Shown here: piece by piece, positions 6,606-60,355 of the stretch
Position numbering within the stretch: the first letter of the stretch is position 1
Layout: every line of letters starts with the position of its first letter
NCBI RefSeq assembly: GCF_003992675.1
Contig: NZ_RZMZ01000016.1
Span: 1 to 64,000 of the forward strand
Length of the DNA: 64,000 bases
Source of the DNA: Flagellimonas marinaquae
GTDB lineage: Bacteria > Bacteroidota > Bacteroidia > Flavobacteriales > Flavobacteriaceae
Direction of reading: 5' to 3'
Made by a program: the position numbers and the translations under genes
Notes under the pieces: generated by a model
The model's database searches: none
Seen by the model: only the letters and a program-made list of their open reading frames with translations
Told to the model about the DNA's origin: nothing

Positions 6606-7373
6606 ATGATAAGCATCACTTTCAGGAGACTTTGCGTTATTATTTTAATGGAATTTGGGTATATGGGATATACCCAGACCATTATCAATACTGAAAATAT
6701 GATGTCAGCCCTGGATGACAAATTTTCATATCACATGAATATAAGGGGAGATATGAATTTTGGCAACATTGATCTGATTCAATTCAGTACGGCACAACAA
6801 ATTTCCAAGTCACTTGACAAAAATCTATTAAGACTTATTTTCAATTACGATTATATTGAGCAGAATGGAATACAAATTTCTTCGGATTTCACAGGACAGT
6901 TAAGATACAATTATAGATTGGGTCAACATTCCATCTTTGCATTTGTTCAAGGACAAAATATCAAATCCCTTAGAATGAATCACCGTTATATAACAGGCGG
7001 AGGATATCGGCATAGGGTATTCCAAAAAGAAGATAATTATTGGGATTTGTCATTGGGTCTGTTTTTTGAGGACGAATTGTACGATGCGAATTTGAACACA
7101 GTGCAACAAGTGAACAACTGGAGGTATAGTGTAAGTACTTTTATAAAATATGGTTTTTCGGAAAAATTCTCAGGCAACCTTTCACTTTATTGGCAAATCA
7201 ATACATCATATACCAGGGATTATCGGGTATTTCTGGAGCCAAGACTATATTATTCGATACAGAAATTCGACGTTTTTATTGACTGGACATTTAGGTTTCA
7301 TTCCACTCCTTACATCGATGTGTTGAGACAGGACAGTACAGTCAACCTCGGAATTGAATTTGAGTTATTCTGA
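6606..7373 (+). CDS. DUF481-like outer membrane beta-barrel protein
   Basis: The 255-residue product has a short N-terminal hydrophobic segment (signal-like) and then alternating amphipathic strands ending in a C-terminal aromatic residue (GIEFELF), typical of an outer membrane barrel. The pattern GDMNFGNID..., RLGQHSIFAFVQGQ and YRHRVF resembles the DUF481 (YdiY) family of eight-to-ten-strand barrels. The role of that family is unclear. The cleavage site is not obvious (perhaps after GYTQ). It lies about 180 bases after the small membrane gene and 50 bases before the KAP NTPase. Confidence 0.6.
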   Translation: MISITFRRLCVIILMEFGYMGYTQTIINTENMMSALDDKFSYHMNIRGDMNFGNIDLIQFSTAQQISKSLDKNLLRLIFNYDYIEQNGIQISSDFTGQLRYNYRLGQHSIFAFVQGQNIKSLRMNHRYITGGGYRHRVFQKEDNYWDLSLGLFFEDELYDANLNTVQQVNNWRYSVSTFIKYGFSEKFSGNLSLYWQINTSYTRDYRVFLEPRLYYSIQKFDVFIDWTFRFHSTPYIDVLRQDSTVNLGIEFELF

Positions 7374-10370: not shown

Positions 10371-11107
10371 ATGATAAAACAAATTAGAGAAATTGTGAAG
10401 GTTGATGGAAATCATAAGATTTCCCTCTTTTTGGATCGATTAATCACTGTTAGCATAGTTATTGCCATAGTTCATTTGACATTGGAAACCGAAAAGGATT
10501 TCTATAAGGCTCACCGGAGTTTTTTCCGTGTTGTTGAAATTCTTTTGACAATAATTTTTACCGTTGAGTATATAATGCGTTTAATTGCTTACAATCGTCA
10601 GACCGATAGGAGTTTTTTATCTCATATTCTCTCATCTTCAATGTTGATTGATTTAATGGCTCTAATCCCATTCTATCTTACTTTATTGCCGGTTGATTTA
10701 CGTTATTTAAGGATATTTAGGCTATTTCGAATAGCCCGTATTTTTAAGCTCGCGCGATATAACAGGGCCATCAACATTGTACGAATAGTTATGAAAGATA
10801 GAAAAGAATTGCTTACTGTAAGTTTTTTTTGATTTTCTTTATACTTTATATAGTCAGTGCGTTAATGTATTATGTTGAAAACCAGGCGCAACCGGAATCA
10901 TTTTCGAGCATTATTAAAACAATGTGGTGGGGTGTGGCAACACTTACGACAGTAGGATATGGAGATATTTATCCCATTACAGGATTAGGAAAAATATTGG
11001 GTGGAATTATTGCTGTTTTAGGTATTGGTCTCTTTGCAATCCCTACGGGTATCATTGCTTCCGGATTCTTGGAATACTTCGAAAAAAATAACGTTGGCAA
11101 GAGGTAA
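10371..11107 (+). pseudogene. Voltage-gated K+ channel, split by a -1 frame shift at a T8 run
   Basis: Two overlapping frames encode one channel. 10371-10832 gives spans S1-S4, with an S4 segment carrying regularly spaced arginines (RYLRIFRLFRIARIFK). 10829-11107 gives S5, the pore helix, the selectivity filter TTVGYGD and S6. The join is at eight T residues (10823-10830): reading one base back (or one extra T) gives a continuous product of about 245 residues, the usual size of a six-TM KvAP-like channel without a cytoplasmic ligand domain. Everything else is intact, so this is either a recent single-base lesion, a sequencing error in a homopolymer, or slippage-dependent expression. Confidence 0.8.
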
Positions 11108-47271: not shown

Positions 47272-47409
47272 ATCGTTTGGTTTAAAATGTCCTAAAAAGT
47301 AATGGCAATTGTCAGATTAACGATAATTGAACAATGATATAATCCTTTTGAGATAACAGATACTCCTTTTTAGATAACTCTATAGCCTGCTTGGAATGAG
47401 GTATGACCG

Positions 47410-47469: not shown

Positions 47470-47853
47470 ATGAAAAGGACACATGAAAACAACTATGCGA
47501 TTTATCTCCTGACCGATGAGCTAATGCACGTCATTTATAAAAAGGTGCCCCTCATTGACCTGAAGGCGGCACAGTTGATTGTTCAGGATCGGATGTACTT
47601 ACAGGAAGGTAGGGAAATGCCGGTGCTCTGTGATATTAGGGATGTGAGGACCATCAATAAGGCGGCGCGGGATTATTTGGCACTGGAGGGTTCGCTTTGG
47701 ATCAAGGCCCTGGCCTTTTTGATCGACCCGCCCGTAACGGATGATCTCAGTATCTTTTATATGAACACCCATCCTACTAAGATTCCGACGGCATCTTTTG
47801 TCAGCAAATCGGGAGCCTTGGCTTTTTTGGCAAAACACACCTCCAAAAACTAG
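47470..47853 (+). CDS. STAS/SpoIIAA-like protein
   Basis: The 127-residue product has the strand-helix pattern EMPVLCDIRDVRTINKAARDYLA, followed by AFLIDPPVTDDLSIFYMN and FVSKSGALAFL, as in STAS/SpoIIAA-type domains such as those in DUF7793. It could be a signalling or anti-sigma-antagonist module. It is followed 12 bases later by the PAS-AraC regulator. Confidence 0.55.
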   Translation: MKRTHENNYAIYLLTDELMHVIYKKVPLIDLKAAQLIVQDRMYLQEGREMPVLCDIRDVRTINKAARDYLALEGSLWIKALAFLIDPPVTDDLSIFYMNTHPTKIPTASFVSKSGALAFLAKHTSKN

Positions 47854-48792: not shown

Positions 48793-48888
48793 CAGCTTCA
48801 AAAAAATTGATTTAATCCGTTTCGGATAACGATTGCTCCCTTAGGGATAAACCAGTCTCCCGAACTTTGTCATATCAAATCAAACGAT

Positions 48889-49338
48889 ATGGCGAATCAA
48901 GGAATCCACTCCAAGCTTGTTACCCTCTTCAGCCTTTTGCTGACCCTTCTGTTCGTTTATACAGCGGTAAGCAAACTGATTGAGCTGGACACCTTTCAAT
49001 GGCGTTTGGAACGGATGCCCTACATTGCCCCCTATGCCTCTTTGCTCTCATGGAAAATACCCTTTCTGGAATTGATCATTGCTGGCCTGTTGTGGTTGCC
49101 CAGATACAAAATCATGGCACTCTATGCCAGCTTTATGCTATTGGGGATTTTTACCCTATACATCGTTTTGGTCTTAAAATTTAGTGATTCCATCCCCTGT
49201 TCTTGCGGCGAGGTTATTTCAGCATTGGGATGGACGGACCATATCCTATTGAATGTCTCATTTATGGTCCTTGCTCTATTGGGCATCCTTTGGTCCAAGA
49301 AAAAATACAACACCCAAACACATCAAAATACTACGTAG
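48889..49338 (+). CDS. MauE/DoxX-like redox membrane protein
   Basis: The 149-residue product has four membrane spans and a conserved SIPCSCGEVISALGW (C104, C106) in the loop after span three, as in MauE, a membrane component implicated in periplasmic disulfide formation. It is followed 59 bases later by the DUF6520 peptide, which has a Cys pair, so a redox partnership is plausible. Confidence 0.8.
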   Translation: MANQGIHSKLVTLFSLLLTLLFVYTAVSKLIELDTFQWRLERMPYIAPYASLLSWKIPFLELIIAGLLWLPRYKIMALYASFMLLGIFTLYIVLVLKFSDSIPCSCGEVISALGWTDHILLNVSFMVLALLGILWSKKKYNTQTHQNTT

Positions 49339-49397
49339 GGAAAGGGGAAGCCGAAAACCTAGAATAGAGTAGGCATTCACTTATAATACTTAACATT

Positions 49398-49643
49398 ATG
49401 AAAGCTAAATTTTTCAAATTGTTGTTGCCGGCCTTTGCCATCTTGATGGCGGTCGGTCTGGCCTTTGCCACGGAGAATGAACGTGTGACCCAAGAGGCTC
49501 ATTATTTTCTTCTTGGACAGGGTTGGCAGACTGTCATGATTGAAGATGACTGTGATGCTACAGGGCAATCACCCTGTGAATTCAACGGTATTCAATTGTA
49601 TTCAGAACCTGATTTCGCAAGTATTGCCTTGCGCAAACCTTGA
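49398..49643 (+). CDS. DUF6520 family small exported peptide
   Basis: The 81-residue precursor has a signal peptide (MKAKFFKLLLPAFAILMAVGLAF), a mature start near FATE, a CDATGQSPC pair (C52, C60) and the family's LRKP-like C-terminus. DUF6520 peptides are small flavobacterial exported proteins of unknown function. It lies right after the MauE-like gene and before a clear terminator. Confidence 0.8.
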   Translation: MKAKFFKLLLPAFAILMAVGLAFATENERVTQEAHYFLLGQGWQTVMIEDDCDATGQSPCEFNGIQLYSEPDFASIALRKP

Positions 49644-49666
49644 TGGGTTTTAAATGCCATTAACTT

Positions 49667-49698
49667 AAAGGTGCCCCTGTACAGGGCACCTTTTTTGA
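49667..49698 (+). terminator. Rho-independent terminator after the DUF6520 gene
   Basis: GGTGCCC and GGGCACC form a stem (arms 49670-49676 and 49684-49690) with a 7-nt loop, followed by T6. It closes the STAS-AraC-MauE-DUF6520 unit and also separates it from the convergent protease gene. Confidence 0.85.
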
Positions 49699-49760
49699 CT
49701 AACTCAAACATCTCCCATGCATCAGTATTGGTATACTTTGCTAAGGGAAAACTCTTCTAC

Positions 49761-52079
49761 TTAAGGGAGGATGGTATTGATTTTTTGAAGGCATAAAAGC
49801 CAATGCCCATTCACTTCTTTTCGCCGTCCCTTGTTCACTTTGTTTTCCAATTTGGTTTTCAATTCCAACAACCGCTCAGCCAATAGTCCTTTTGCATAAT
49901 CGGTATAGTCGGTCAGCTTTGCATCGGAATTATAGACTGAAATTTCAATGTCCAGGATGGCACCCAATCTTTCAATATAGGCCATTTGGAGTTCCTGAAT
50001 CCGTGTGGAGAGGTCCTTTTCGTTGTCCAGATTTGTGAATAGGCCTTCCTGTACTTTTACCAGAAACTGCTCTAGTAGATTGTTGCCCATCAGCCCCTCC
50101 ATATATTCCAATCGTTTGAGCCTTGGGGCCAGCAATAATTCGGTCATTAGCTTGATCTGGTATTCCGAGACCTTATCTGGAAAGGTGGTATACTTCACCT
50201 TTACCATAAAATCGGGATCGGTCAGCCACTTTGGTGGGTGGAATGCATTTTGAACCAAAAAGTCAATGGCTTCTTCCTGCTTGCCCCATGCAATGGGGTC
50301 GAACATATTTCCAGGCTGGTCCAAGGCTTGATATTGCAAGTCATAGCCACCGATGACCGAGGCAACATGCTTCATGTGATCGTACCATAGATTGACGGAT
50401 TTGTTGTACAGACGGAACAATCTTGCGTTGCCTTTTTCATTCAAGGTGGCACTGGGTATCATTGCGATGGCGCGCTCCACATTCCTTAGGGCCATGGAGG
50501 TACTACGCACGGGATCGTTGGTCTCGACCACTTCATCGGTCTTAGCTGGGCCGATTTCCTCAAATCTTGTTTCATTGAACCGATACCACGGAAAGGAATC
50601 CTGTAAACGGATCATGTTCTCCAAAAGTTGGGATTTTTCTTCCTTAGTGGTACCAGATGGGAACTCCTGATAACCCCATCTTATGGAATAGAGATCCGTG
50701 GGACCGACCTTGGGAATCAATAAGTTTGGAGGGATGTTATCCTTGGGTTGTGGGATATTGTTGTGCCTGGTATAGTTCATGACACTTGGGGTATGTCCCA
50801 TAGTGGTCAACCAGTTTGGATCGCTTACTTGATCGACACTATAGCTGTACTCTCCAAAATTTCCATCTTTAAGACCTAGGGCGTGTCCGGTCTCATGGGC
50901 CGTCAATCCTTGGAATAATCGTCCGATCAACTCATTAGGGAAGGGAAAGCGTTGAGCCCTTTCATCCAGGGGAGCTGCCCGGATAAAATACCTTTCCTCC
51001 AGGGTCTCTCGGGAAGCGTTCAAAAAAATGTCTGCCTTTAAGATTTCACCTGTTCGGTCATCGATGACACATCCAATGGTTCCCCCATATTCATTTTGCT
51101 CATAATCCCTAAAATAGCGTTTCTGCCCCCAATAAACTATATTGGTGTTTATACTGAATTTATCCCATTCGCTTAAACTATCGGTTTCTATCACCCGTAT
51201 GGCGTCTTTGAAGCCTGCAGCTTCTAGGGCAGGCAACCATTCCTCGATGCCCGCTTTTACATAGGGGTGCCATTTTTTAGGAATTTCAGGGGACAACAGA
51301 AAGATAATGGGTTTGATGGGAACACTGCTGCTGTTGTCTTTATATTTTTTTTCCAGCCGCCACCTTCTAATATTGGCCCTGCTGTTATGGGTCCCATCGG
51401 GATGGATGCCATGTCGGATTCCGAAATGGTCCTCACTATAATAACCCATTCGATAATCATGCGTTCTTGATTTCATGGGTTCAGGCAAAGTTGAAAAGCT
51501 AAAATACATGGGAAACGATACCCTTTCTTTTTTAGAGACCATTCCTCGTCGAACTTTGATGATGACCTCGTTGTCACGGTCTTTGCTATCCTCTACAAAT
51601 GAGATATCAGGAATGGAGGGGCCAAAGGATACGCCAAGATATTGGGGCCATTCGATAATTTTGTTCAAGATCAAATCGGTGACATCGATGCGGTATCCCC
51701 TGGATTCACCTTGTTGCTGTTCCAAGGGAAAAATGGCCAGTACATTGTCCATCAATTCCCTGTCCTTTACCACGGGCAAAATAACCCCTGAAGTAGAGGG
51801 AACACTAAGGGCCTCTAATATGATGTTATCCTTATGACGTGCCCAAGCTATTTGCATATAGCTATTGGTCATTCCTTTAAAGCAGTTGAACAACATGGGT
51901 TGGTCCAATAGATTATCGGGAATATTGAGGAATAATTGGCCACCTACAATTTCCGTGGTCAAAAAAGCAGGGCTGTAATCACTATCTAGCTCGGTTTTGA
52001 TTTCCCCATTCAACGGTGAGGCTTCCAGCTGCCCAAAGAACAGGAATAAAAGAATTAGGGGTAACTTGATATGTTTCAT
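49761..52079 (-). CDS. Zinc-dependent metalloprotease (DUF5117/DUF4953 type)
   Basis: Signal peptide (to about LEAS) begins a 772-residue protease. The zinc motif TAHETGHALGLKDG (HETGH at 395-399) and SVMNYTRHN downstream match the Bacteroidota DUF5117-DUF4953 metzincin-like family. Secreted or periplasmic. It is downstream of the SusC/SusD pair on the minus strand and converges with the DUF6520 operon, so it could process a peptide. Confidence 0.85.
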   Translation of the reverse strand: MKHIKLPLILLFLFFGQLEASPLNGEIKTELDSDYSPAFLTTEIVGGQLFLNIPDNLLDQPMLFNCFKGMTNSYMQIAWARHKDNIILEALSVPSTSGVILPVVKDRELMDNVLAIFPLEQQQGESRGYRIDVTDLILNKIIEWPQYLGVSFGPSIPDISFVEDSKDRDNEVIIKVRRGMVSKKERVSFPMYFSFSTLPEPMKSRTHDYRMGYYSEDHFGIRHGIHPDGTHNSRANIRRWRLEKKYKDNSSSVPIKPIIFLLSPEIPKKWHPYVKAGIEEWLPALEAAGFKDAIRVIETDSLSEWDKFSINTNIVYWGQKRYFRDYEQNEYGGTIGCVIDDRTGEILKADIFLNASRETLEERYFIRAAPLDERAQRFPFPNELIGRLFQGLTAHETGHALGLKDGNFGEYSYSVDQVSDPNWLTTMGHTPSVMNYTRHNNIPQPKDNIPPNLLIPKVGPTDLYSIRWGYQEFPSGTTKEEKSQLLENMIRLQDSFPWYRFNETRFEEIGPAKTDEVVETNDPVRSTSMALRNVERAIAMIPSATLNEKGNARLFRLYNKSVNLWYDHMKHVASVIGGYDLQYQALDQPGNMFDPIAWGKQEEAIDFLVQNAFHPPKWLTDPDFMVKVKYTTFPDKVSEYQIKLMTELLLAPRLKRLEYMEGLMGNNLLEQFLVKVQEGLFTNLDNEKDLSTRIQELQMAYIERLGAILDIEISVYNSDAKLTDYTDYAKGLLAERLLELKTKLENKVNKGRRKEVNGHWLLCLQKINTILP

Positions 52080-52111
52080 CTTACGTTATGTTTTACTATT
52101 GAATTGACCCT

Positions 52112-52147
52112 ATTACAGGACCTTGTTAAATAACCAGGTCCTGTAAT
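52112..52147 (-). promoter_or_regulatory. Strong hairpin between susD and the protease gene
   Basis: Perfect 12-bp arms (ATTACAGGACCT / AGGTCCTGTAAT) around 12 bases that can pair further (GTTA/TAAC). On the minus strand it is not followed by a T-run, so it may be a processing or stability element rather than a simple terminator. Confidence 0.6.
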
Positions 52148-52160
52148 TGATCTTTTTGTT

Positions 52161-53600
52161 TTAATAGCCTACATTTTGAGGCAATAGATTCGGATTGAGT
52201 TCCAATTGGGATTCTGGTATGGGTAGCAATAGATTCGTTTCATTCCAATTGGGCTTGATGTCATCCAATATAGTCCCCGCATTTCCGGTGCGTTTAAGGT
52301 CAAACCAACGATGTCCCTGTTCCGTAAAAAGTTCCAGTTGCCGTTCTTTCAGGATAGCTTCCAATAGTTCAGTCTGGGTGTTTGCTTGTGTCGCAGTAAG
52401 GCCTGCCCGCTCCCTAATCTGATTGAGGTCGTTCGCGGCCCCAATGAGATTTCCCAGACGGGCCCTTGCTTCAGCCCGGATCAAATACTGTTCGGCCAAA
52501 CGGAACAAAATGGAATATTCCAAGGATTCTGTTTCATTGTAATCGGCCTTGTATTTATGGGGGTAGTAGAACGTGATGGTGTTGTCCCTATCCGAAATAG
52601 GTTCGGTCCATTCCTCATACCTAAGGTCATTTTCTTCAAATGACGACAACAGCTCTTCGGTAAGGGCATAGGTCTGACCCGGGACCAATTCAATGGTCAA
52701 TGTGCCTCCTTCACTTGTATTGATGGGAAATTGATCATCGGCCTGTAGCTGCCAAATGGTTTCTGGTGACGCTTTTAAGAAGACACGGTCCAGATCCATT
52801 TCCAACTGAAAGTTCGCTATCAAATCCGTTGCATAGGATACCGCCTGTTCCCAATCCCCGACGTACAAATGTATTCGGGCCAAAAGGGCCTTGGCCGTGT
52901 AGGCATCCGGAATGACCCTGTTAGATGTTACAGGTTCTTGCCCTTCCAAAAGCCCAACGGCTTCTTCCAAGTCCACAATGATATTGTCGTACACCGCAGA
53001 TTCAGGCAATCGCGAAACCCTATTGTTCTCTTCATAATCCGTGGTCTTGATATAGGGCACATCCCCAAATAGCCCAACCAATTGACTGTGCATGTAAGAG
53101 CGAATGAAAAGGGCCTCTCCCTTGAACCTGTTTCTTTCGGAACTGCTCAAGGCCTTGGATGACTCCACGCCTTCAATGATGGCATTGGCCCCGTAGATTA
53201 GGCTGTAGGCCTGGTTCCACCATAGCTCTACTCGATTGTTGATAGCGATAATGTTATGATTGTAGAATTGGGCCAGATCCACATTGAATCCATAATAGTC
53301 CAGTTCATCGGCATAAATGCCAAGGGTAGGGGTCAGGCCAAAGTTTCCCGATACCATGCCCTGCTCCCTCATATTGTAGTAGAGATTGGCCATTGTGGAT
53401 TCGACCGTGGCAGGGTCCTCAAATACGGTCTCAGCTATGAGAATGTTCTGTGGCGGATCGACTTCAACGAATTCCGTACATCCCAAAAGCAACATGCATT
53501 GCAGGATGATGATCTGATAGGGTCTCGATAAAATGGGGTTCCTTACAAAGGACTTTATCGCTGTCCTTTTATGATATGTTGTTTTATCTATTTTTTTCAT
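52161..53600 (-). CDS. RagB/SusD family outer membrane lipoprotein
   Basis: The 479-residue product has a lipobox (LLLGC, about 41) and the SusD pattern with YDNIIVDLEEAV, RIHLYVGDW and FDLKRTGNA near the end. It captures ligand at the surface with SusC. Gene order susC-susD is standard, 15 bases apart. Confidence 0.85.
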   Translation of the reverse strand: MKKIDKTTYHKRTAIKSFVRNPILSRPYQIIILQCMLLLGCTEFVEVDPPQNILIAETVFEDPATVESTMANLYYNMREQGMVSGNFGLTPTLGIYADELDYYGFNVDLAQFYNHNIIAINNRVELWWNQAYSLIYGANAIIEGVESSKALSSSERNRFKGEALFIRSYMHSQLVGLFGDVPYIKTTDYEENNRVSRLPESAVYDNIIVDLEEAVGLLEGQEPVTSNRVIPDAYTAKALLARIHLYVGDWEQAVSYATDLIANFQLEMDLDRVFLKASPETIWQLQADDQFPINTSEGGTLTIELVPGQTYALTEELLSSFEENDLRYEEWTEPISDRDNTITFYYPHKYKADYNETESLEYSILFRLAEQYLIRAEARARLGNLIGAANDLNQIRERAGLTATQANTQTELLEAILKERQLELFTEQGHRWFDLKRTGNAGTILDDIKPNWNETNLLLPIPESQLELNPNLLPQNVGY

Positions 53601-53615
53601 CTTGAAAGGATTTGG

Positions 53616-56600
53616 TTAAAAACTGATTTGTAGGCCTAAAGTGAGCTGTCTTAGCGGGGGCAAGCGCGTGCTAGAGGGTTGTTCTGGGTCTGGCCCGTAG
53701 TAATTGGTCAAGGTCCACAGGTTTTGTCCCTGTAGGTAGACGTTGATATCCAACCTATTCTCCATAGTGGGCAGTTTGTAGTTCAGTGCAATGTTCCTGA
53801 GACGGAGGAAGGAGGCGTCGGAGACCGCGGCATTGCTACTCTGTTGGCGGCCCCCCAAATCCTCCACCGTTGTGAAACCACTGGAAGAGCGCTGATAGGT
53901 CGCGATATCCCCGGGCTGTTGCCATCTGTCCAATAGGGCTACAGGCACATTGCCCCTGAAGCCTGGCGTGGCATCAAAGCGGACCGCATTATAGGCTCGC
54001 TGTTTTTTGAACTGAAAGAACACATCCAAGCTCAGGTTTCCCAAAGTGAAGGTGTTGCCCATGCCCCCATACCACTTGGGGGCCAAATCTTCGATCCATT
54101 CCAAGTCCCCTGGATTGCTGACCTCTCCATCACCATCATAGTCCTCAAACTCATAGATGCCTGTCTCAGGATTGACACCGAGTGCATTGTAGAGTTTCAC
54201 GATGGTTAAAGGTTCCCCGATGACATATCGATTGGCAAAAGTGGAGGATTCAAGGTCATCGAATTCGACCAGCTTATTTTTGGGAACGGTCAGGTTCAGG
54301 GTGGTGGACCATTCAAACTGTTTGGAACGGACATTGACCGTTCTCAGGTCCACTTCAAATCCCGTGTTCTCGACCACAGCATCAAAATTGCCCGTTAATT
54401 GGGAAAAACCCGTGGTGGCTGCCAAGGGAATCCCTACCAACTGATTGGAGGAACGGTTTCGGTACCAAGAGGTGTTGAGGAAAACCCGATCATTGAAAAA
54501 CCCGAGTTCCAAGGCGGCTTCCAATTTTCGATTGGCTTCCCAGCCAAACTGTGGATTAAATATGCCTGAGGGTTCCAATAGGGTAGTGCCCGCATAGGAT
54601 TCCCCGGAGACATTGTAAGTGTCCAAATAACGATAGTCCCCAATGTTGTCACTTCCCGTGATGCCATAACTGCCCCGAAGCTTTCCATGGCTTAAAAATG
54701 AGCTTTCCTTAAATAGGGTTTCCCTTGAAAAGATCCAGGCAAGGCCAACGGCACCAAAGTTTCCGAACTGCCTTCCCGGACCAAAGCGGGAAGACCCGTC
54801 ACGACGGCCGGTAAGGTTCAAGATATATCGGTCATACAGCTTTAGGTTGATGCGACCGAAGAGGGCACTATAACGATAATCGGCATCGGAGGTGGAGAAG
54901 ATTTCCAAGGATTGGGCCGCGGCCAAATTTTTGATCAATCCATTATTGGGAAAGCCCCTTCCCCGAAGTACGATTTGATTCGAACTTTCTTGTTGGAAGG
55001 TAGTGCCTACCAATACATCCAGCGAAAGCCTGTCCCAATGCTTCTTCCAGTTCAACTGCGGCTCCACGATCCAGGATTCCCGCTCTGAGGCGTTGGTGGT
55101 CAGGTTGGAAAAGTTTTGTGGTGTGAGTCCCAGACCTGGGTTTCTGGCCGTGTTGGGATTGGTGACATAGGAGTCCAATCGATAGCGGGTGAAGCCCAAA
55201 CTGGACTTCAGTTCCAAATTGGGCGCTACGGCGTAGGATAAAGTTGCATTGGAGATAATGGTATTGGTAGCAGCTACAAATTCCTCCTCCAAGGCGGCCA
55301 AAGGGTTATCCCAGGTGTTGTTCTCCCAGTTCAGGTTGCCCTCCTCATCAAATAGGGCTGGGGCATTGGGTTCCAAGGAATAGGCTTGCTGGGTAAAGTC
55401 TGCTCCGGGCAATCGGTTATCCTCTCGGGTGTAACTACTGGAAAAGTTGATTTTGAACTTCCCATTGTTGGATCGGTGGGTCAGATTACTGTTCAAGCTT
55501 GCCTTTCTGTAATTGGCATCCCCGGGAAATACCGTGGTCTCCTTTAAATAACCGCCACTGACCAAGAATTGGGTCAGCTCATTGCCCCCGGAAATGGAAA
55601 GCTGTGCGTTCTGGCGATAGGCGGTACCCCCGATCAATTCCTTTTGCCAATCCGTATAGCGATTGTTGTCCCATACTGTAATATCCGGCCAAAAACCGTC
55701 AAGGGCCGGATTTTCCAATAGCGGGGTAAGCCCATCGTTGTCTATGCCTTCCCTACGGATTTCCAAATATTGTTGGCTGTTCATTAAGTCCAAGAAATTG
55801 GAAACACCGCTCAGGGTAGTACTCAAATGGGCATCGAAGCGGGTTTTGCCTGCCTTTCCTTTTTTAGTGGTGATCAATACCACCCCATTCGCCCCACGGG
55901 AGCCGTAGATGGCCGTGGCATCGGCATCCTTCAATACTTCGATGCTTTCGATGTCATTGGGATTGATGGCGTTCAGTGGACTGATGTCCCCGATGATTTC
56001 AGTGGAGACACGAGGGGCCGCTAATGACTGGGAACCGTAAGGCACGCCGTCCACGATGTAGAGGGGGTCGGTAACTCCGTTGAGGAAGTTGCGGCCACGG
56101 ACCTCTACAGAGAAACTACCTCCGGGGACTCCTGTGTTCTGGACAATGTTGACGCCCGATAGATGTCCCTGCATGGCTGCCAATGGATTGGCGACAGGTT
56201 GTTTTTCCATGATTTCTGATTTGATAGTGGCGATACTTCCAGTCCGTTCCTTTTCGGAAACGGTATAATAGCCCGCATTGAGGATCACTTCCCCTAACTG
56301 GGTGACATCTTCTTCCATTTGGACATTGATGGTATTTCTTCCATCGTTGGGGACTTCCAAGGTCCTAAAGCCTACTATGGAAAAGACCAATAGGTCATTG
56401 GGACCAGCTTGAATGCTATAGGTGCCGTCCATATCGGAAATGGTTCCTCGATTGGTGGATTGTACCCTTATGGTAACACCACCTAATGGTAGACCATTTA
56501 TATCAGTAATGGTACCAGAAATGGTACTCTGCGGTGGGTCAAAGGTTATCCCTGCTGCCAGTTTTTGGTGGAGTAAGGGAGCTAATAGGAGATATAAGAA

Positions 56601-56645
56601 CAGGAACATTTTGGTCCTGCTTATTTGATTTAATGAGTTCTTCAT
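53616..56645 (-). CDS. SusC/RagA family TonB-linked outer membrane transporter
   Basis: The 1009-residue product has a signal peptide, a CarboxypepD-reg-like N-domain (ITDINGLPLGGVTIRVQSTNRGTISDMDG), a plug region (DADATAIYGSRGANGVVLITTKKG) and a 22-strand barrel ending in ISF. It imports a large substrate with SusD. The substrate here is probably a peptide, given the protease, but this is inferred. Confidence 0.9.
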   Translation of the reverse strand: MKNSLNQISRTKMFLFLYLLLAPLLHQKLAAGITFDPPQSTISGTITDINGLPLGGVTIRVQSTNRGTISDMDGTYSIQAGPNDLLVFSIVGFRTLEVPNDGRNTINVQMEEDVTQLGEVILNAGYYTVSEKERTGSIATIKSEIMEKQPVANPLAAMQGHLSGVNIVQNTGVPGGSFSVEVRGRNFLNGVTDPLYIVDGVPYGSQSLAAPRVSTEIIGDISPLNAINPNDIESIEVLKDADATAIYGSRGANGVVLITTKKGKAGKTRFDAHLSTTLSGVSNFLDLMNSQQYLEIRREGIDNDGLTPLLENPALDGFWPDITVWDNNRYTDWQKELIGGTAYRQNAQLSISGGNELTQFLVSGGYLKETTVFPGDANYRKASLNSNLTHRSNNGKFKINFSSSYTREDNRLPGADFTQQAYSLEPNAPALFDEEGNLNWENNTWDNPLAALEEEFVAATNTIISNATLSYAVAPNLELKSSLGFTRYRLDSYVTNPNTARNPGLGLTPQNFSNLTTNASERESWIVEPQLNWKKHWDRLSLDVLVGTTFQQESSNQIVLRGRGFPNNGLIKNLAAAQSLEIFSTSDADYRYSALFGRINLKLYDRYILNLTGRRDGSSRFGPGRQFGNFGAVGLAWIFSRETLFKESSFLSHGKLRGSYGITGSDNIGDYRYLDTYNVSGESYAGTTLLEPSGIFNPQFGWEANRKLEAALELGFFNDRVFLNTSWYRNRSSNQLVGIPLAATTGFSQLTGNFDAVVENTGFEVDLRTVNVRSKQFEWSTTLNLTVPKNKLVEFDDLESSTFANRYVIGEPLTIVKLYNALGVNPETGIYEFEDYDGDGEVSNPGDLEWIEDLAPKWYGGMGNTFTLGNLSLDVFFQFKKQRAYNAVRFDATPGFRGNVPVALLDRWQQPGDIATYQRSSSGFTTVEDLGGRQQSSNAAVSDASFLRLRNIALNYKLPTMENRLDINVYLQGQNLWTLTNYYGPDPEQPSSTRLPPLRQLTLGLQISF

Positions 56646-57011: not shown

Positions 57012-57167
57012 GGTCAGGCCCGCTCTAGAACTGGAACCGACCGATGATAAATACTCTATTAAAAAAATAAGCCTTTTGTTTCCCATAATCCATTGGTTGG
57101 GCGACACCCCGAAAGGACCAAAGAAACCAAACGCTAAGAAAAAGTTGGGCGTGAAAACTCAACTTAC

Positions 57168-57277
57168 CGTATTAGAGGTACTGGTATACCCAGCAATCGA
57201 TAAGAGAGCTCACGCCCGGGTCGTGAGCCATTCTGCTTATCATCTCGATTGCATAAAATTACCAGTTTTCTAATACG
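57168..57277. repeat. 110-nt imperfect inverted repeat
   Basis: The outer arms pair as CGTATTAGA (57168-57176) with TCTAATACG (57269-57277) and ACTGGTA with TACCAGT. The middle arms pair GCAATCGA with TCGATTGC. The centre is GCTCACG-CCCGGGT-CGTGAGC. Overall it folds into one long stem with small bulges. It might be a MITE, a structured RNA or an element-end structure. Confidence 0.6.
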
Positions 57278-57407
57278 AGATTCAAAGCGATAGCTTCAAA
57301 TATGTTCTAAACGAAGAATCGCAAATGTATGTATTCAATTTCAAATATAACAAAATATCCCAAATGCGGAATACATACCGCATTTTTTTCTCCTTCATTT
57401 TATTCTT

Positions 57408-57865: not shown

Positions 57866-58750
57866 ATGAATAATGAAGAAAAAATAAAAACTCTTATAAA
57901 AGAAGCGAATAGTTTAAATCTTTCTTCATTAATTCCAAGTCTCGAAAAAGTTTTGCAAGAGAATGCTTTTGTAGTGCAGTCTTTTTATGATACCAAACCA
58001 AAATTGGACATCGGTGAAGCATATCAGGAAACTCTTTTAATTAAAATAATTTTTACCTCTCGAAGCATATTAGAGTTATCGAAAGGCATTGAATTTGGAA
58101 TATTAAATAGAAAAGAGAGACCCTTAATTATTGACAGGTCATCACTTTACATATTGACAAGGTCAGTAATTGAATCCTTTTTGACTTTAGAATATTTATA
58201 CTTCAATAACTTATCAAGAGAAGAACAAATATTCAGATATAATCTTTGGAGAATTTCAGGTTTTATGGCAAGACAAGATTTTGGAAAAACAAAAAATAAA
58301 AAGTTTTTGTCCAAAATGGAAAAAGAAAAAGCGGCAATAAATGAACTGAAAAAGACCATCAAAACAAGTCCTTATTATTCGAAATTAAAACAACAGCAAT
58401 TGTGGAAATTGGACAAGTATGGTTTACCTAGAATTATGAGTTGGTCTGAACTTTTAAAACAGAGCATACTGAAAACGGATTTATTTGAAAAAGTTTACAA
58501 ACTTTATTCAAATTATGCCCACTCTGAATTTATTGCGATGATTCAACTTAACGAAGGAAAGATGAGCAAAGCAGATTCATTTAATGCTGAAACCACTGTT
58601 ACTACTTTAAATAATATACGTGTAATAAATTGTGTTTCTATAATTTCCTTCATAAACAAATATGAATTCGCAAAAGATAAATATATGGAGATTGACGAAT
58701 CATCAAGATATGTGATTGAATTCTGGAATAAATTTGGAATTGAGGAATGA
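57866..58750 (+). CDS. DUF5677-like helical protein
   Basis: The 294-residue all-helical product contains FTSRSILELSKGIEFGILN and YILTRSVIESFLTLEYLYF, as in DUF5677-type proteins, and YSNYAHSEFIAMIQL, a segment like HEPN-type helices. No signal or membrane span. Possible defence or accessory cargo; function unknown. It converges with the integrase gene. Confidence 0.45.
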   Translation: MNNEEKIKTLIKEANSLNLSSLIPSLEKVLQENAFVVQSFYDTKPKLDIGEAYQETLLIKIIFTSRSILELSKGIEFGILNRKERPLIIDRSSLYILTRSVIESFLTLEYLYFNNLSREEQIFRYNLWRISGFMARQDFGKTKNKKFLSKMEKEKAAINELKKTIKTSPYYSKLKQQQLWKLDKYGLPRIMSWSELLKQSILKTDLFEKVYKLYSNYAHSEFIAMIQLNEGKMSKADSFNAETTVTTLNNIRVINCVSIISFINKYEFAKDKYMEIDESSRYVIEFWNKFGIEE

Positions 58751-58792
58751 AAAAACTGGTGTAGCCTTTCTCCTTTTAGAACATCGCTAAAT

Positions 58793-60028
58793 TCATATTG
58801 ACTTTGCAAATTCTAATAGGGCGGGGTCATTTTTCAACTTTTCCATATCATCCGAAATTTTACTGTCCAAGACCTTGGCATAGATCTGTGTTGTCTTCAA
58901 AGAGGTATGCCCCAGCATTTTGCTTACTGACTCAATGGGTACCCCATTTGAAAGGGTAACGGTCGTTGCAAAGGTATGTCTGGCCAAATGTGTGGTCAAT
59001 GTCTTTTTGATCTTGCAAGCTGTGGCAATTTCTTTCAAATAGGAATTGGTTCTCTGATTGGTGTACACTGGTAGCAGTGTCTTTTTTTGAATTACCCTTG
59101 GATGTTCTTTGTACTTGTCAATAATGGCCTCGGGAATGCTCAATAGGGGAATACTGCTCAAAACCTTGGTTTTTTTCCTTTTTGTCTTGATCCATTTGTT
59201 TCCATTGATGTCCTTGACCAAATCGTCCTTGGTCAACTTTTCGATATCGGCAAAGGCCAGTCCGGTATAACAGCAGAACAAAAACATGTCCCGTACCGTA
59301 TCCAGTCTCTCAAATTCAAATTCTTGCTTGAGCATCACTTCCAGTTCCTTATGGGTCAGGAACTCTCGCTCTTTTTGTTTCCAACTGGCCGACCAATTGA
59401 AGAAGGGGTCCCGGTCAATCCATTGATTGGCATAGGCGATGCGAACAATTTTTTTGAAATTGACGATATATTTGGTCGACGTATTGTGAGAGCAATTTTT
59501 TTTGCTCTTTAAAAAGTAATCAAAGCCCGTTATAAACTCATAATCGATTTTTTTAAGCGGATAATCCTTTTTTTGGTACTTGTGCACTATATAATCGGAG
59601 ATGTGAGATTTGGCGGCTTTATAACGTTGAAGTGTTCCGGCTGAATATTCCTTGCCCACTAAACTTTCCATTTCATCATTGTGATCTTGGAATATTTCCA
59701 AGATCAGATACTGTTTTTGGCCCTTGCCCAAAAAGGTGTTCTTTACCGTATCTGCATCCACGTATTCTTCATTGCGTACGAGCTCATCATAGATGGAAAC
59801 ACACTTAGCTTTCAATGTGTCGAAGAACCGGTTCAATACCAGTGTTTCTGGGGTTTTTCCCCGCAATCGACCAGTCTTGTTATCCCATTTCAAAGGGTCA
59901 ACTTTTTTGCCCGTACTGAACTCTGCACGCTTGCCATCCAGTGTAATACGGGCATAGATGGGCACTAATTTATTGGTACTGGATTTTCTTTTTTTAGGAT
60001 AAAAAATGACGTTGATGGTAGTGAACAT
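58793..60028 (-). CDS. int: Tyrosine site-specific integrase of the ICE
   Basis: From the ATG at 60028 the 411-residue product has an arm-binding domain, a SAM-like core-binding domain, and a catalytic domain with HLARH (347-351), LGHTS (H374) and Y383. The first catalytic arginine position shows TGLAFAD (255-261) instead of TGLR, as in IntDOT-like integrases. It joins and excises the element. It lies at the end of the ICE, facing tRNA-Asp 254 bases away. Confidence 0.85.
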   Translation of the reverse strand: MFTTINVIFYPKKRKSSTNKLVPIYARITLDGKRAEFSTGKKVDPLKWDNKTGRLRGKTPETLVLNRFFDTLKAKCVSIYDELVRNEEYVDADTVKNTFLGKGQKQYLILEIFQDHNDEMESLVGKEYSAGTLQRYKAAKSHISDYIVHKYQKKDYPLKKIDYEFITGFDYFLKSKKNCSHNTSTKYIVNFKKIVRIAYANQWIDRDPFFNWSASWKQKEREFLTHKELEVMLKQEFEFERLDTVRDMFLFCCYTGLAFADIEKLTKDDLVKDINGNKWIKTKRKKTKVLSSIPLLSIPEAIIDKYKEHPRVIQKKTLLPVYTNQRTNSYLKEIATACKIKKTLTTHLARHTFATTVTLSNGVPIESVSKMLGHTSLKTTQIYAKVLDSKISDDMEKLKNDPALLEFAKSI

Positions 60029-60224
60029 GGCAAAAGGTTTTGATTTAACACTTTGAAGATACAAAAAGGGGTCTTAAATAAATGTTAACAAATCCTTGCA
60101 ATAAGTTGCAAAACAGTCTATTACAGCGATGGCGGTGAGCACTTTTTTGAAAGTAAAATGCGCACCGAATTGCTCACCTTTTATATGGTGTTTTTTGCTA
60201 TTTTTTGGTGCCAATGGAAATGAA

Positions 60225-60257
60225 AAAAGCCTGTAAACATCTCGTTTACAGGCTTTT
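60225..60257 (-). terminator. Rho-independent terminator after tRNA-Asp
   Basis: Perfect 14-bp inverted repeat (AAAAGCCTGTAAAC / GTTTACAGGCTTTT) around ATCTC, with A/T flanks on both sides; works in either direction. It lies 25 bases after the tRNA 3' end. Confidence 0.85.
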
Positions 60258-60281
60258 GCATAAATTTGGAAATATTCCAAG

Positions 60282-60355
60282 CGGTCTGGACGGGACTCGA
60301 ACCCGCGACCCCCTGCGTGACAGGCAGGTATTCTAACCAACTGAACTACCAGACC
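60282..60355 (-). tRNA. tRNA-Asp (anticodon GTC)
   Basis: The 74-nt minus-strand cloverleaf: GGTCTGG acceptor, TAGTTCAGTTGGTTA D-arm, CCTGC-CTGTCAC-GCAGG anticodon arm (GTC), GCGGGTTCGAGTCCCGT T-arm and CCAGACC-G. Discriminator G73 fits aspartate. It lies between the integrase and the DUF58 gene; its 3' end faces the integrase. Confidence 0.95.

What the first reader, a model, noticed from the sequence alone, without database searches (positions are those of the whole stretch)
48889..56645. DUF6520 peptide, MauE-like redox protein, secreted metalloprotease and SusC/D as one module
Seen: adjacent MauE-like (CxC) and DUF6520 (C52, C60) genes end at a shared terminator and converge on a protease-SusD-SusC operon. 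Known: MauE is linked to disulfide formation; SusC/D can import peptides. Inference: an exported disulfide-bonded peptide is made, cut by the protease and re-imported through SusC/D, as a signal, metallophore-like or competition peptide.
Basis: inference. Interest (0 to 1): 0.7.

Follow-up and report, generated by a model that had tools for sequence, protein, structure and literature searches.

The report
Swappable peptide, transporter and protease module
A marine-type bacterium carries a gene set pairing a small exported disulfide peptide with a surface import pump and a protease, and in related bacteria these three change together, suggesting the cell makes, recaptures and destroys its own private peptide.

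Summary
In 70 of 74 DUF6520 loci from two genome samples, MauE-DUF6520 faces SusD-SusC; the other four are contig ends or an ORF-start artefact. The enzyme with SusCD varies: DUF4953 metalloprotease (36), S9 peptidase (25) or redoxin (9). In 36 genus genomes, peptide and module-type protease occur in the same 17. In 17 type I loci the mature peptide's divergence tracks protease, SusD and SusC (r 0.86, 0.76, 0.72) but not MauE, AraC or its own signal peptide (about 0.1); nine new loci agree. In other genera MauE and leader track it too. So mature peptide, enzyme and SusCD behave as one specificity cassette. A pseudoknotted leader RNA precedes SusC and reaches no Rfam gathering score. Best reading: a disulfide-locked private peptide, recaptured by cognate SusCD and destroyed by a cognate enzyme, working like lasso-peptide/TonB/isopeptidase loci without being one. 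Export, binding and cleavage are untested; linkage alone could explain the co-variation.

The parts
47343..47377 (+). direct repeat TCCNTTNNRRATAA x2, 21-bp period, upstream of DUF7793; presumed AraC operator
   Evidence: pattern drawn from these sites; up to 2 mismatches: 4 places in the genome, 3 at the two modules; reversed control 0. Single half-sites are no more frequent than chance (8 against 6.5)
47470..47853 (+). DUF7793 protein, co-directional with the regulator
   Evidence: PF25056, 127 bits
47866..48792 (+). PAS-like + AraC-type regulator
   Evidence: HTH_18 71.7 bits; PAS_9 23.3 bits, below its cut-off of 27
48816..48850 (+). second copy of the operator repeat, upstream of MauE
48889..49338 (+). 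MauE-type membrane protein (CxC), proposed disulfide former
49398..49472 (+). DUF6520 signal peptide (residues 1-25), conserved, no lipobox
   Evidence: cleavage site by inspection
49473..49640 (+). DUF6520 mature peptide (56 aa, C52 and C60), hypervariable; predicted small beta fold
49667..49693 (+). terminator hairpin between the convergent operons
49761..52079 (-). DUF4953/DUF5117 zinc metalloprotease with a signal-like N-terminus; HExxHxxGxxD at residues 395-405 (50865-50897), Met-turn S432-M434
   Evidence: (invariant in 20 proteins)
52161..53600 (-). SusD-family protein (LLGC lipobox by inspection)
53616..56645 (-). SusC-family TonB-dependent transporter; residues 161-1009 co-vary with the mature peptide, 1-160 do not
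57147..57301 (-). pseudoknotted leader RNA with terminator-like stem, 502-656 nt upstream of the SusC start

Best explanation
A private-peptide capture-and-destroy module. (1) DUF6520 is exported by Sec; MauE (in other loci MauE plus a propeller-like protein) closes its one or two disulfides, giving a small folded peptide (inferred from Cys pattern, linkage and a fold model). (2) The peptide leaves the cell by an unknown route (inferred, weakest step). (3) It is the dedicated ligand of the SusD-SusC pair encoded opposite (inferred from linkage and shared inheritance). (4) In the periplasm it is dismantled by the linked enzyme: DUF4953 metalloprotease here, S9 peptidase or redoxin elsewhere (inferred). 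(5) In type I loci mature peptide, enzyme and SusCD are exchanged as one cassette with borders at the signal peptide and the SusC N-terminus (co-variation shown; exchange inferred from it). (6) AraC probably controls its own operon and peptide production (repeats shown, binding inferred); a structured leader RNA precedes the receiver operon (structure shown, regulation inferred). The likeliest use is a privatised carrier or marker molecule whose value comes on recapture, as has been suggested for lasso peptides with isopeptidases.
For: Architecture in 70 of 74 loci, all 70 with a peptidase or redoxin. Co-occurrence in 36 genus genomes: 17 with both peptide and module-type protease, 19 with neither. 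Different enzyme types able to break a peptide or its disulfides. Even Cys count in 76 of 76 peptides. Mature peptide tracks protease/SusD/SusC and not MauE, AraC or its own leader in 17 type I loci, repeated in 9 new loci.
Against: No outer-membrane exporter recognised in the module. Linkage may cause the co-variation: the mature peptide lies next to the protease, and given the protease SusC and SusD add nothing (partial r -0.17 and -0.09). When types I and II are pooled (28 loci) MauE (0.47) and leader (0.57) also correlate, as they do in type II (0.38, 0.44) and in S9-type loci of other genera (0.77, 0.71). Three protease-SusD blocks in genome G010 lie with FecR and ECF-sigma genes and without MauE. 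L209 has module-type MauE and a peptide but no SusCD within about 7-8 kb, and L211 has neither. The redoxin of L121 is below Pfam's cut-off. Three of the 19 negative genomes are under 90% complete, and G021 among them has module-type SusC near contig ends. SusC's two best solved relatives are only titled 'SusC homolog'; RagA is third, so the substrate class is open. No wet data.
Confidence: 0.5

Rival explanations
1. DUF6520 stays in the periplasm as a partner protein: a cognate inhibitor, chaperone or gate for the linked peptidase or the SusC channel, and SusCD imports something else.
For: No outer-membrane export route recognised in the locus; strongest co-variation is with the protease (0.86; partial 0.68 given SusC); the peptide is a compact predicted fold.
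Against: The enzyme is exchanged for S9 or redoxin while peptide and SusCD stay; a general inhibitor need not diversify; SusD (surface location recalled) tracks the peptide too (0.76), though not beyond the protease.
Confidence: 0.22
2. DUF6520 is a narrow-range bacteriocin entering relatives through SusCD-type receptors; the linked SusCD plus peptidase is an import-and-destroy immunity.
For: Patchy (17 of 36 genus genomes), 1-5 copies per genome, hypervariable mature part, cassette-like inheritance, protease the tightest match; peptide-less receiver blocks exist.
Against: Mature peptides are mostly acidic (mean net charge -4.8; 0 or below in 87% of 76) and hydrophilic (mean GRAVY -0.54); no separate immunity gene; a producer carrying its own entry receptor would be odd (inference).
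Confidence: 0.12
3. Autocrine pheromone: recaptured peptide fragments are sensed and switch on the sender operon.
For: AraC-type regulator and operator-like repeats on the sender operon; FecR/ECF-sigma genes accompany some receiver blocks.
Against: AraC hardly co-varies with the peptide (0.10 in 17 type I, 0.23 in 11 type II, 0.08 in 9 new, 0.09 in 8 S9-type loci), so it is unlikely to be its specific receptor; Pfam shows no STN-type signalling domain on the window SusC.
Confidence: 0.1
4. Ordinary peptide-scavenging SusCD-protease locus; MauE-DUF6520 is a neighbour without functional tie.
For: SusCD-type peptide uptake is known (RagAB; PMC11817032 passages); G010 blocks without MauE; linkage could explain the correlations.
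Against: Near-universal convergent linkage across families and enzyme types, co-occurrence by genome and block-wise inheritance.
Confidence: 0.06

Closest known systems
Lasso peptide / TonB-dependent transporter / isopeptidase clusters (astexin, AtxE2, SpI-IsoP)
   Same: Small ribosomal peptide, linked TonB-dependent transporter and a linked enzyme that breaks only the cognate peptide, sigma/anti-sigma pairs, function unsettled (PMC9266682, passages read). The S9 enzyme of L068 has its best NCBIfam match to the Atxe2 model (109.9 bits).
   Different: Sec-type disulfide peptide; no lasso cyclase or leader peptidase among the ten window proteins scanned; SusC plus SusD; a metalloprotease in the window. 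The L068 match is far below the model's cut-off of 400, and in the PDB the S9 enzyme of L116 is closer to other S9 peptidases (72.8 bits) than to AtxE2 (31.2 bits).
RagAB and other SusCD peptide importers
   Same: SusC/SusD pair with CarbopepD_reg domain; RagA is third among the nine solved relatives; RagAB occurs as allelic types in which barrel and lid correspond (PMC11817032 passages).
   Different: RagAB takes up foreign protein fragments; here a self-encoded peptide co-varies with the transporter.
MauE of methylamine utilisation
   Same: Family PF07291; there too linked to a secreted disulfide-containing polypeptide (recalled, from no call).
   Different: No methylamine dehydrogenase among the window proteins scanned; the substrate would be DUF6520.
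Siderophore cycle with hydrolase (enterobactin/Fes; recalled)
   Same: Export, recapture by a TonB transporter, destruction to free cargo.
   Different: Ribosomal peptide, no known cargo, no conserved metal ligands.

Membership tests
DUF6520 (PF20130) | score over Pfam cut-off | tested here: met
   62 bits, cut-off 25.4
MauE (PF07291) | score over Pfam cut-off | tested here: met
   97.9 bits, cut-off 27
MauE (PF07291) | makes disulfides in a secreted partner | not testable with these tools
   only indirect: even Cys in 76 of 76 partner peptides
SusC/RagA transporter (TIGR04056) | score over NCBIfam cut-off, SusD next to it | tested here: met
   713 bits, cut-off 368; SusD_RagB 98.8 bits
DUF4953 met-zincin (PF16313) | score over cut-off and intact HExxHxxGxxD | tested here: met
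   232 bits; residues invariant in 20 aligned proteins
Lasso peptide isopeptidase system | isopeptidase of the Atxe2 family (NF033523 cut-off 400) | tested here: not met
   no NCBIfam match for the window protease; S9 enzyme of L068 reaches 109.9 bits
Lasso peptide isopeptidase system | lasso cyclase and leader peptidase in the locus | tested here: not met
   none among the ten window proteins scanned between 44866 and 58750
FecR/ECF-sigma-coupled SusC | FecR and sigma factor adjacent | tested here: not met
   absent among the ten window proteins; present at the G010 blocks
Peptide metallophore | conserved metal ligands | tested here: not met
   in the mature part only the two Cys are invariant in 32 peptides
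Known Rfam leader RNA or riboswitch | match over a family's gathering score | tested here: not met
   tested on the window, L138 and L037 elements; best sub-threshold match U3, 22.3 bits, gathering 34

The most novel reading that the evidence does not exclude
An unnamed, recurrent Bacteroidota system in which a cell makes a disulfide-locked mini-protein, recaptures it through a matched SusCD and destroys it with a matched enzyme; specificity (mature peptide + enzyme + SusCD) is swapped between strains as a cassette under conserved export and regulation arms, giving private, strain-specific molecules analogous to privatised siderophores or pheromone groups, with the receiver under a new leader RNA.
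Probability: 0.4. Interest if true: 0.88.

Novelty: new variant of a known kind. Interest (0 to 1): 0.75.

Why it matters
Many SusCD pairs have no known ligand (recalled); here the locus itself names a candidate and shows co-inheritance of ligand, receptor and degrading enzyme. That makes a testable case of self/non-self peptide exchange in Bacteroidota and offers a function for DUF6520, a DUF4953 subfamily and a MauE subfamily. No paper holding 'DUF6520' or 'DUF4953' was found in the held library; searches combining MauE with SusD, redoxin, disulfide or Bacteroidetes showed nothing relevant in their listings.

Tried and rejected
Tried without result: Pfam/NCBIfam on the propeller-like partner (nothing over a cut-off; Imm43 at E 0.065); PDB sequence search for DUF4953 (none at E 0.01); fold search with the peptide model (best E 2.2); DUF4953 model too uncertain to use (pLDDT 64); operator repeat within 300 nt upstream of SusC (none convincing; none near the window SusC); att-type repeat of the tRNA-Asp end (none of 18 bases or more); paper searches for NVEAL (0) and for a SusC leader RNA (nothing relevant in the listing).

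Considered and rejected: MauE as a marker of the module. From the top of that list I fetched 40 loci (already fetched places and frames of about 290-450 aa left out); 9 carried a module-type MauE (my HMM, 90 bits or more), 7 of them with SusD-SusC and a small Cys peptide.

Rows dropped before counts: L126, L136, L149 (weak PF20130 hits without module) from 77 loci to 74; two weakest hits (G149, G215) not fetched; L174 left out of the new-loci test for lack of AraC; loci with identical peptide ORFs collapsed in the S9 set. L162, labelled a SAR324 MAG, equals L163 over its first 613 bases and is then unrelated, hence read as a chimeric contig. In one search the mature part was cut at residue 25 by rule, so a few ORFs with overlong starts are cut wrongly.
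Full report
What is there. The window holds two convergent operons. Left, plus strand: DUF7793, a PAS-like/AraC regulator, MauE and DUF6520. Right, minus strand: SusC, SusD and a DUF5117/DUF4953 zinc protease. They meet at a hairpin with a T tract only for the left operon. DUF6520 is an 81-residue precursor with a signal peptide, no lipobox and two mature cysteines. The genome has one other DUF6520 gene, in the same architecture.

Linkage. I took all 40 DUF6520 hits of 59 relatives and 37 of the 39 further ones of 395 phylum genomes (loci). Of these 77 loci three were weak matches without a module. In 70 of the remaining 74 the peptide follows MauE on one strand and faces SusD and SusC on the other. 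Of the four others L038, L039 and L144 end at contig edges, and L130 fails only because of an overlong ORF start. All 70 have an enzyme with SusCD: DUF4953 in 36, S9 peptidase in 25, redoxin in 9. The redoxin of L121 is below Pfam's cut-off, and L141 also has a subtilase. The peptidases sit 3' of SusD; the redoxins sit 5' of SusC, except in L141. The set includes the window itself (L076) and three contigs of genome G022 with one peptide. By genome, 27 of 395 phylum genomes carry the module on this evidence. Among 24 named loci, 21 show DUF4953-SusD-SusC opposite; L169 and L170 end at contig edges and L162 is chimeric.

Co-occurrence. With my own profiles the peptide occurs in 17 of 36 genus genomes. 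Module-type DUF4953 (939 bits or more; all others 399 at most) occurs in exactly those 17, in 41 copies. Six copies have no module peptide beside them: three at contig edges or on a short contig (G010:C31, G022:C29, G022:C52), and three in G010:C3, in a cluster with FecR and ECF-sigma genes and no MauE. One Cys-less leader-like ORF remains there (L154:4058-4240). Of the 19 negative genomes three are under 90% complete, and G021 has two module-type SusC genes near contig ends, so its absence is doubtful.

Peptide chemistry. In 76 unique peptides the mature part has 2 Cys (35) or 4 Cys (41). In the set, 23 of 23 loci with MauE alone have 2 Cys, and 15 of 15 with a separate and 3 of 3 with a fused propeller-like protein have 4; L141 breaks this (propeller, 2 Cys). 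Among 32 aligned peptides only C52 and C60 are invariant outside the leader. Net charge is mostly negative. The AlphaFold2 model gives residues 31-81 block means of 81-90 pLDDT and a small beta structure without a PDB match.

Who evolves with whom. Type I means MauE alone, type II MauE plus a separate propeller protein. For 17 type I loci with all seven genes, divergence of the mature peptide correlates with DUF4953 (0.86), SusD (0.76) and SusC (0.72), each p 0.0005 in 2000 permutations, and not significantly with MauE (0.13), AraC (0.10), DUF7793 (0.08) or its own signal peptide (0.11). With 21 type I loci MauE reaches p 0.049 at r 0.12. In 11 type II loci the values are 0.84, 0.79 and 0.84 against MauE 0.38, AraC 0.23, DUF7793 0.21 and leader 0.44. 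Pooled (28 loci) MauE (0.47) and leader (0.57) correlate too, since the types differ in both. Along type I loci there are sharp steps: DUF7793, AraC and MauE move together; then the leader; then mature peptide, protease, SusD and SusC 161-1009 (0.53-0.84 for the proteins); SusC 1-160 is decoupled again (0.14-0.18). Nine new loci repeat it more weakly: 0.77 protease, 0.40 SusD, 0.60 SusC beyond residue 150, against 0.06 MauE, 0.08 AraC, -0.09 leader. In 22 S9-type loci of other genera S9 (0.78), SusC beyond 150 (0.76) and SusD (0.66) track the peptide, but so do MauE-propeller (0.77) and leader (0.71); AraC (0.09, 8 loci) does not, SusC 1-150 weakly (0.32). So the constant unit is mature peptide, enzyme and SusCD; MauE and leader leave it in the window's own type. 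Linkage cannot be excluded as the cause: the peptide lies next to the protease, and partial correlations credit the protease (0.68), not SusC (-0.17) or SusD (-0.09). The conserved leader may simply serve as a recombination arm.

Regulation. A 21-bp-spaced direct repeat precedes DUF7793 and MauE (47343-47377, 48816-48850). Similar repeats are visible in the AraC-MauE gap of other loci, which is exactly 96 nt long in 18 of 29. The tandem pattern, drawn from these sites, occurs at four places in the genome, three at the two modules; single half-sites are no rarer than chance predicts. None lies near the window SusC. Because AraC hardly co-varies with the peptide, it is unlikely to be its specific sensor.

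A structured RNA. An element of about 155 nt lies upstream of SusC (57147-57301, minus). It was found in 60 of 72 SusC upstream regions that I extracted from module loci, S9-type included; of the 12 misses three had under 330 nt of sequence. On 42 sequences the proposed structure with pseudoknot is 89.3% paired, against 35-45% when partners are slid; shuffles keep 86.2% because the columns are conserved, but none of 500 reaches the observed value. Cells changed on both sides number 68 against 21.2 in shuffles; 15 pairs have such changes. The pseudoknot helix is 99.3% paired with compensatory changes at two positions; another helix (53-57 with 112-116) is only 36% paired. I placed the helices after seeing these sequences, which favours them in the slid control. 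The window, L138 and L037 elements reach no Rfam 15 gathering score. The model finds two copies in the own genome, both at the modules, and 57 in 27 of 59 genomes. I count 25 of the 57 outside the module loci known by then and fetched 20: 17 have a same-strand ORF downstream (SusC in four; two look ECF-sigma-like to my eye), two are at contig edges, one is unclear (read by eye, no control). So it is probably a leader RNA class wider than this module, perhaps an attenuator.

Mechanism and standing. The closest working model is the lasso-peptide cluster with TonB transporter and isopeptidase, where the enzyme acts only on the cognate peptide and the purpose is still called enigmatic (PMC9266682, passages). 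This module would work like that but is not a member: other peptide, other maturation, other enzyme. Shown here: architecture, co-occurrence, Cys pattern, block-wise co-variation, RNA structure. Inferred: disulfide formation by MauE, release, SusCD binding, cleavage, purpose. SusD surface location, TonB-transporter direction and the siderophore comparison are recalled knowledge.

Noticed in passing
window 57147-57301 (-); L224-L243: Structured, pseudoknotted leader RNA without an Rfam 15 match over gathering; also upstream of other genes in genomes where no module was seen.
   Followed up: partly
L154, L155 (G010:C3): Three DUF4953-SusD blocks of module type clustered with FecR and ECF-sigma genes, without MauE; one Cys-less leader-like ORF remains.
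   Followed up: partly
L057:9021-10070; fused to MauE in L068, L069, L075, L116: Propeller-like protein (shape by my reading) of about 350 aa without any Pfam or NCBIfam family over cut-off, tied to 4-Cys peptides.
   Followed up: partly
L210:7346-7660 and 6897-7211; L146:9897-10172 and 10499-10771: Two tandem peptide genes in one module.
   Followed up: no
window 57866-60355: DUF5677 gene and an integrase-like protein (my reading) next to tRNA-Asp, just beyond the module; no att repeat of 18 bases or more found.
   Followed up: partly
L162 (LSNO01000104.1): Contig labelled SAR324 MAG is identical to Allomuricauda aurea for 613 bases and then unrelated: likely chimeric.
   Followed up: yes
G000:C4:245625-245659 (L153, L159): Fourth operator-like site, in a region without module genes; perhaps chance.
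   Followed up: partly
G008:C7:15447-17768 and G008:C8:605543-607783: Module-type protease matches in G008 were reported with a stop inside (1 TAG, 1 TGA).
   Followed up: no
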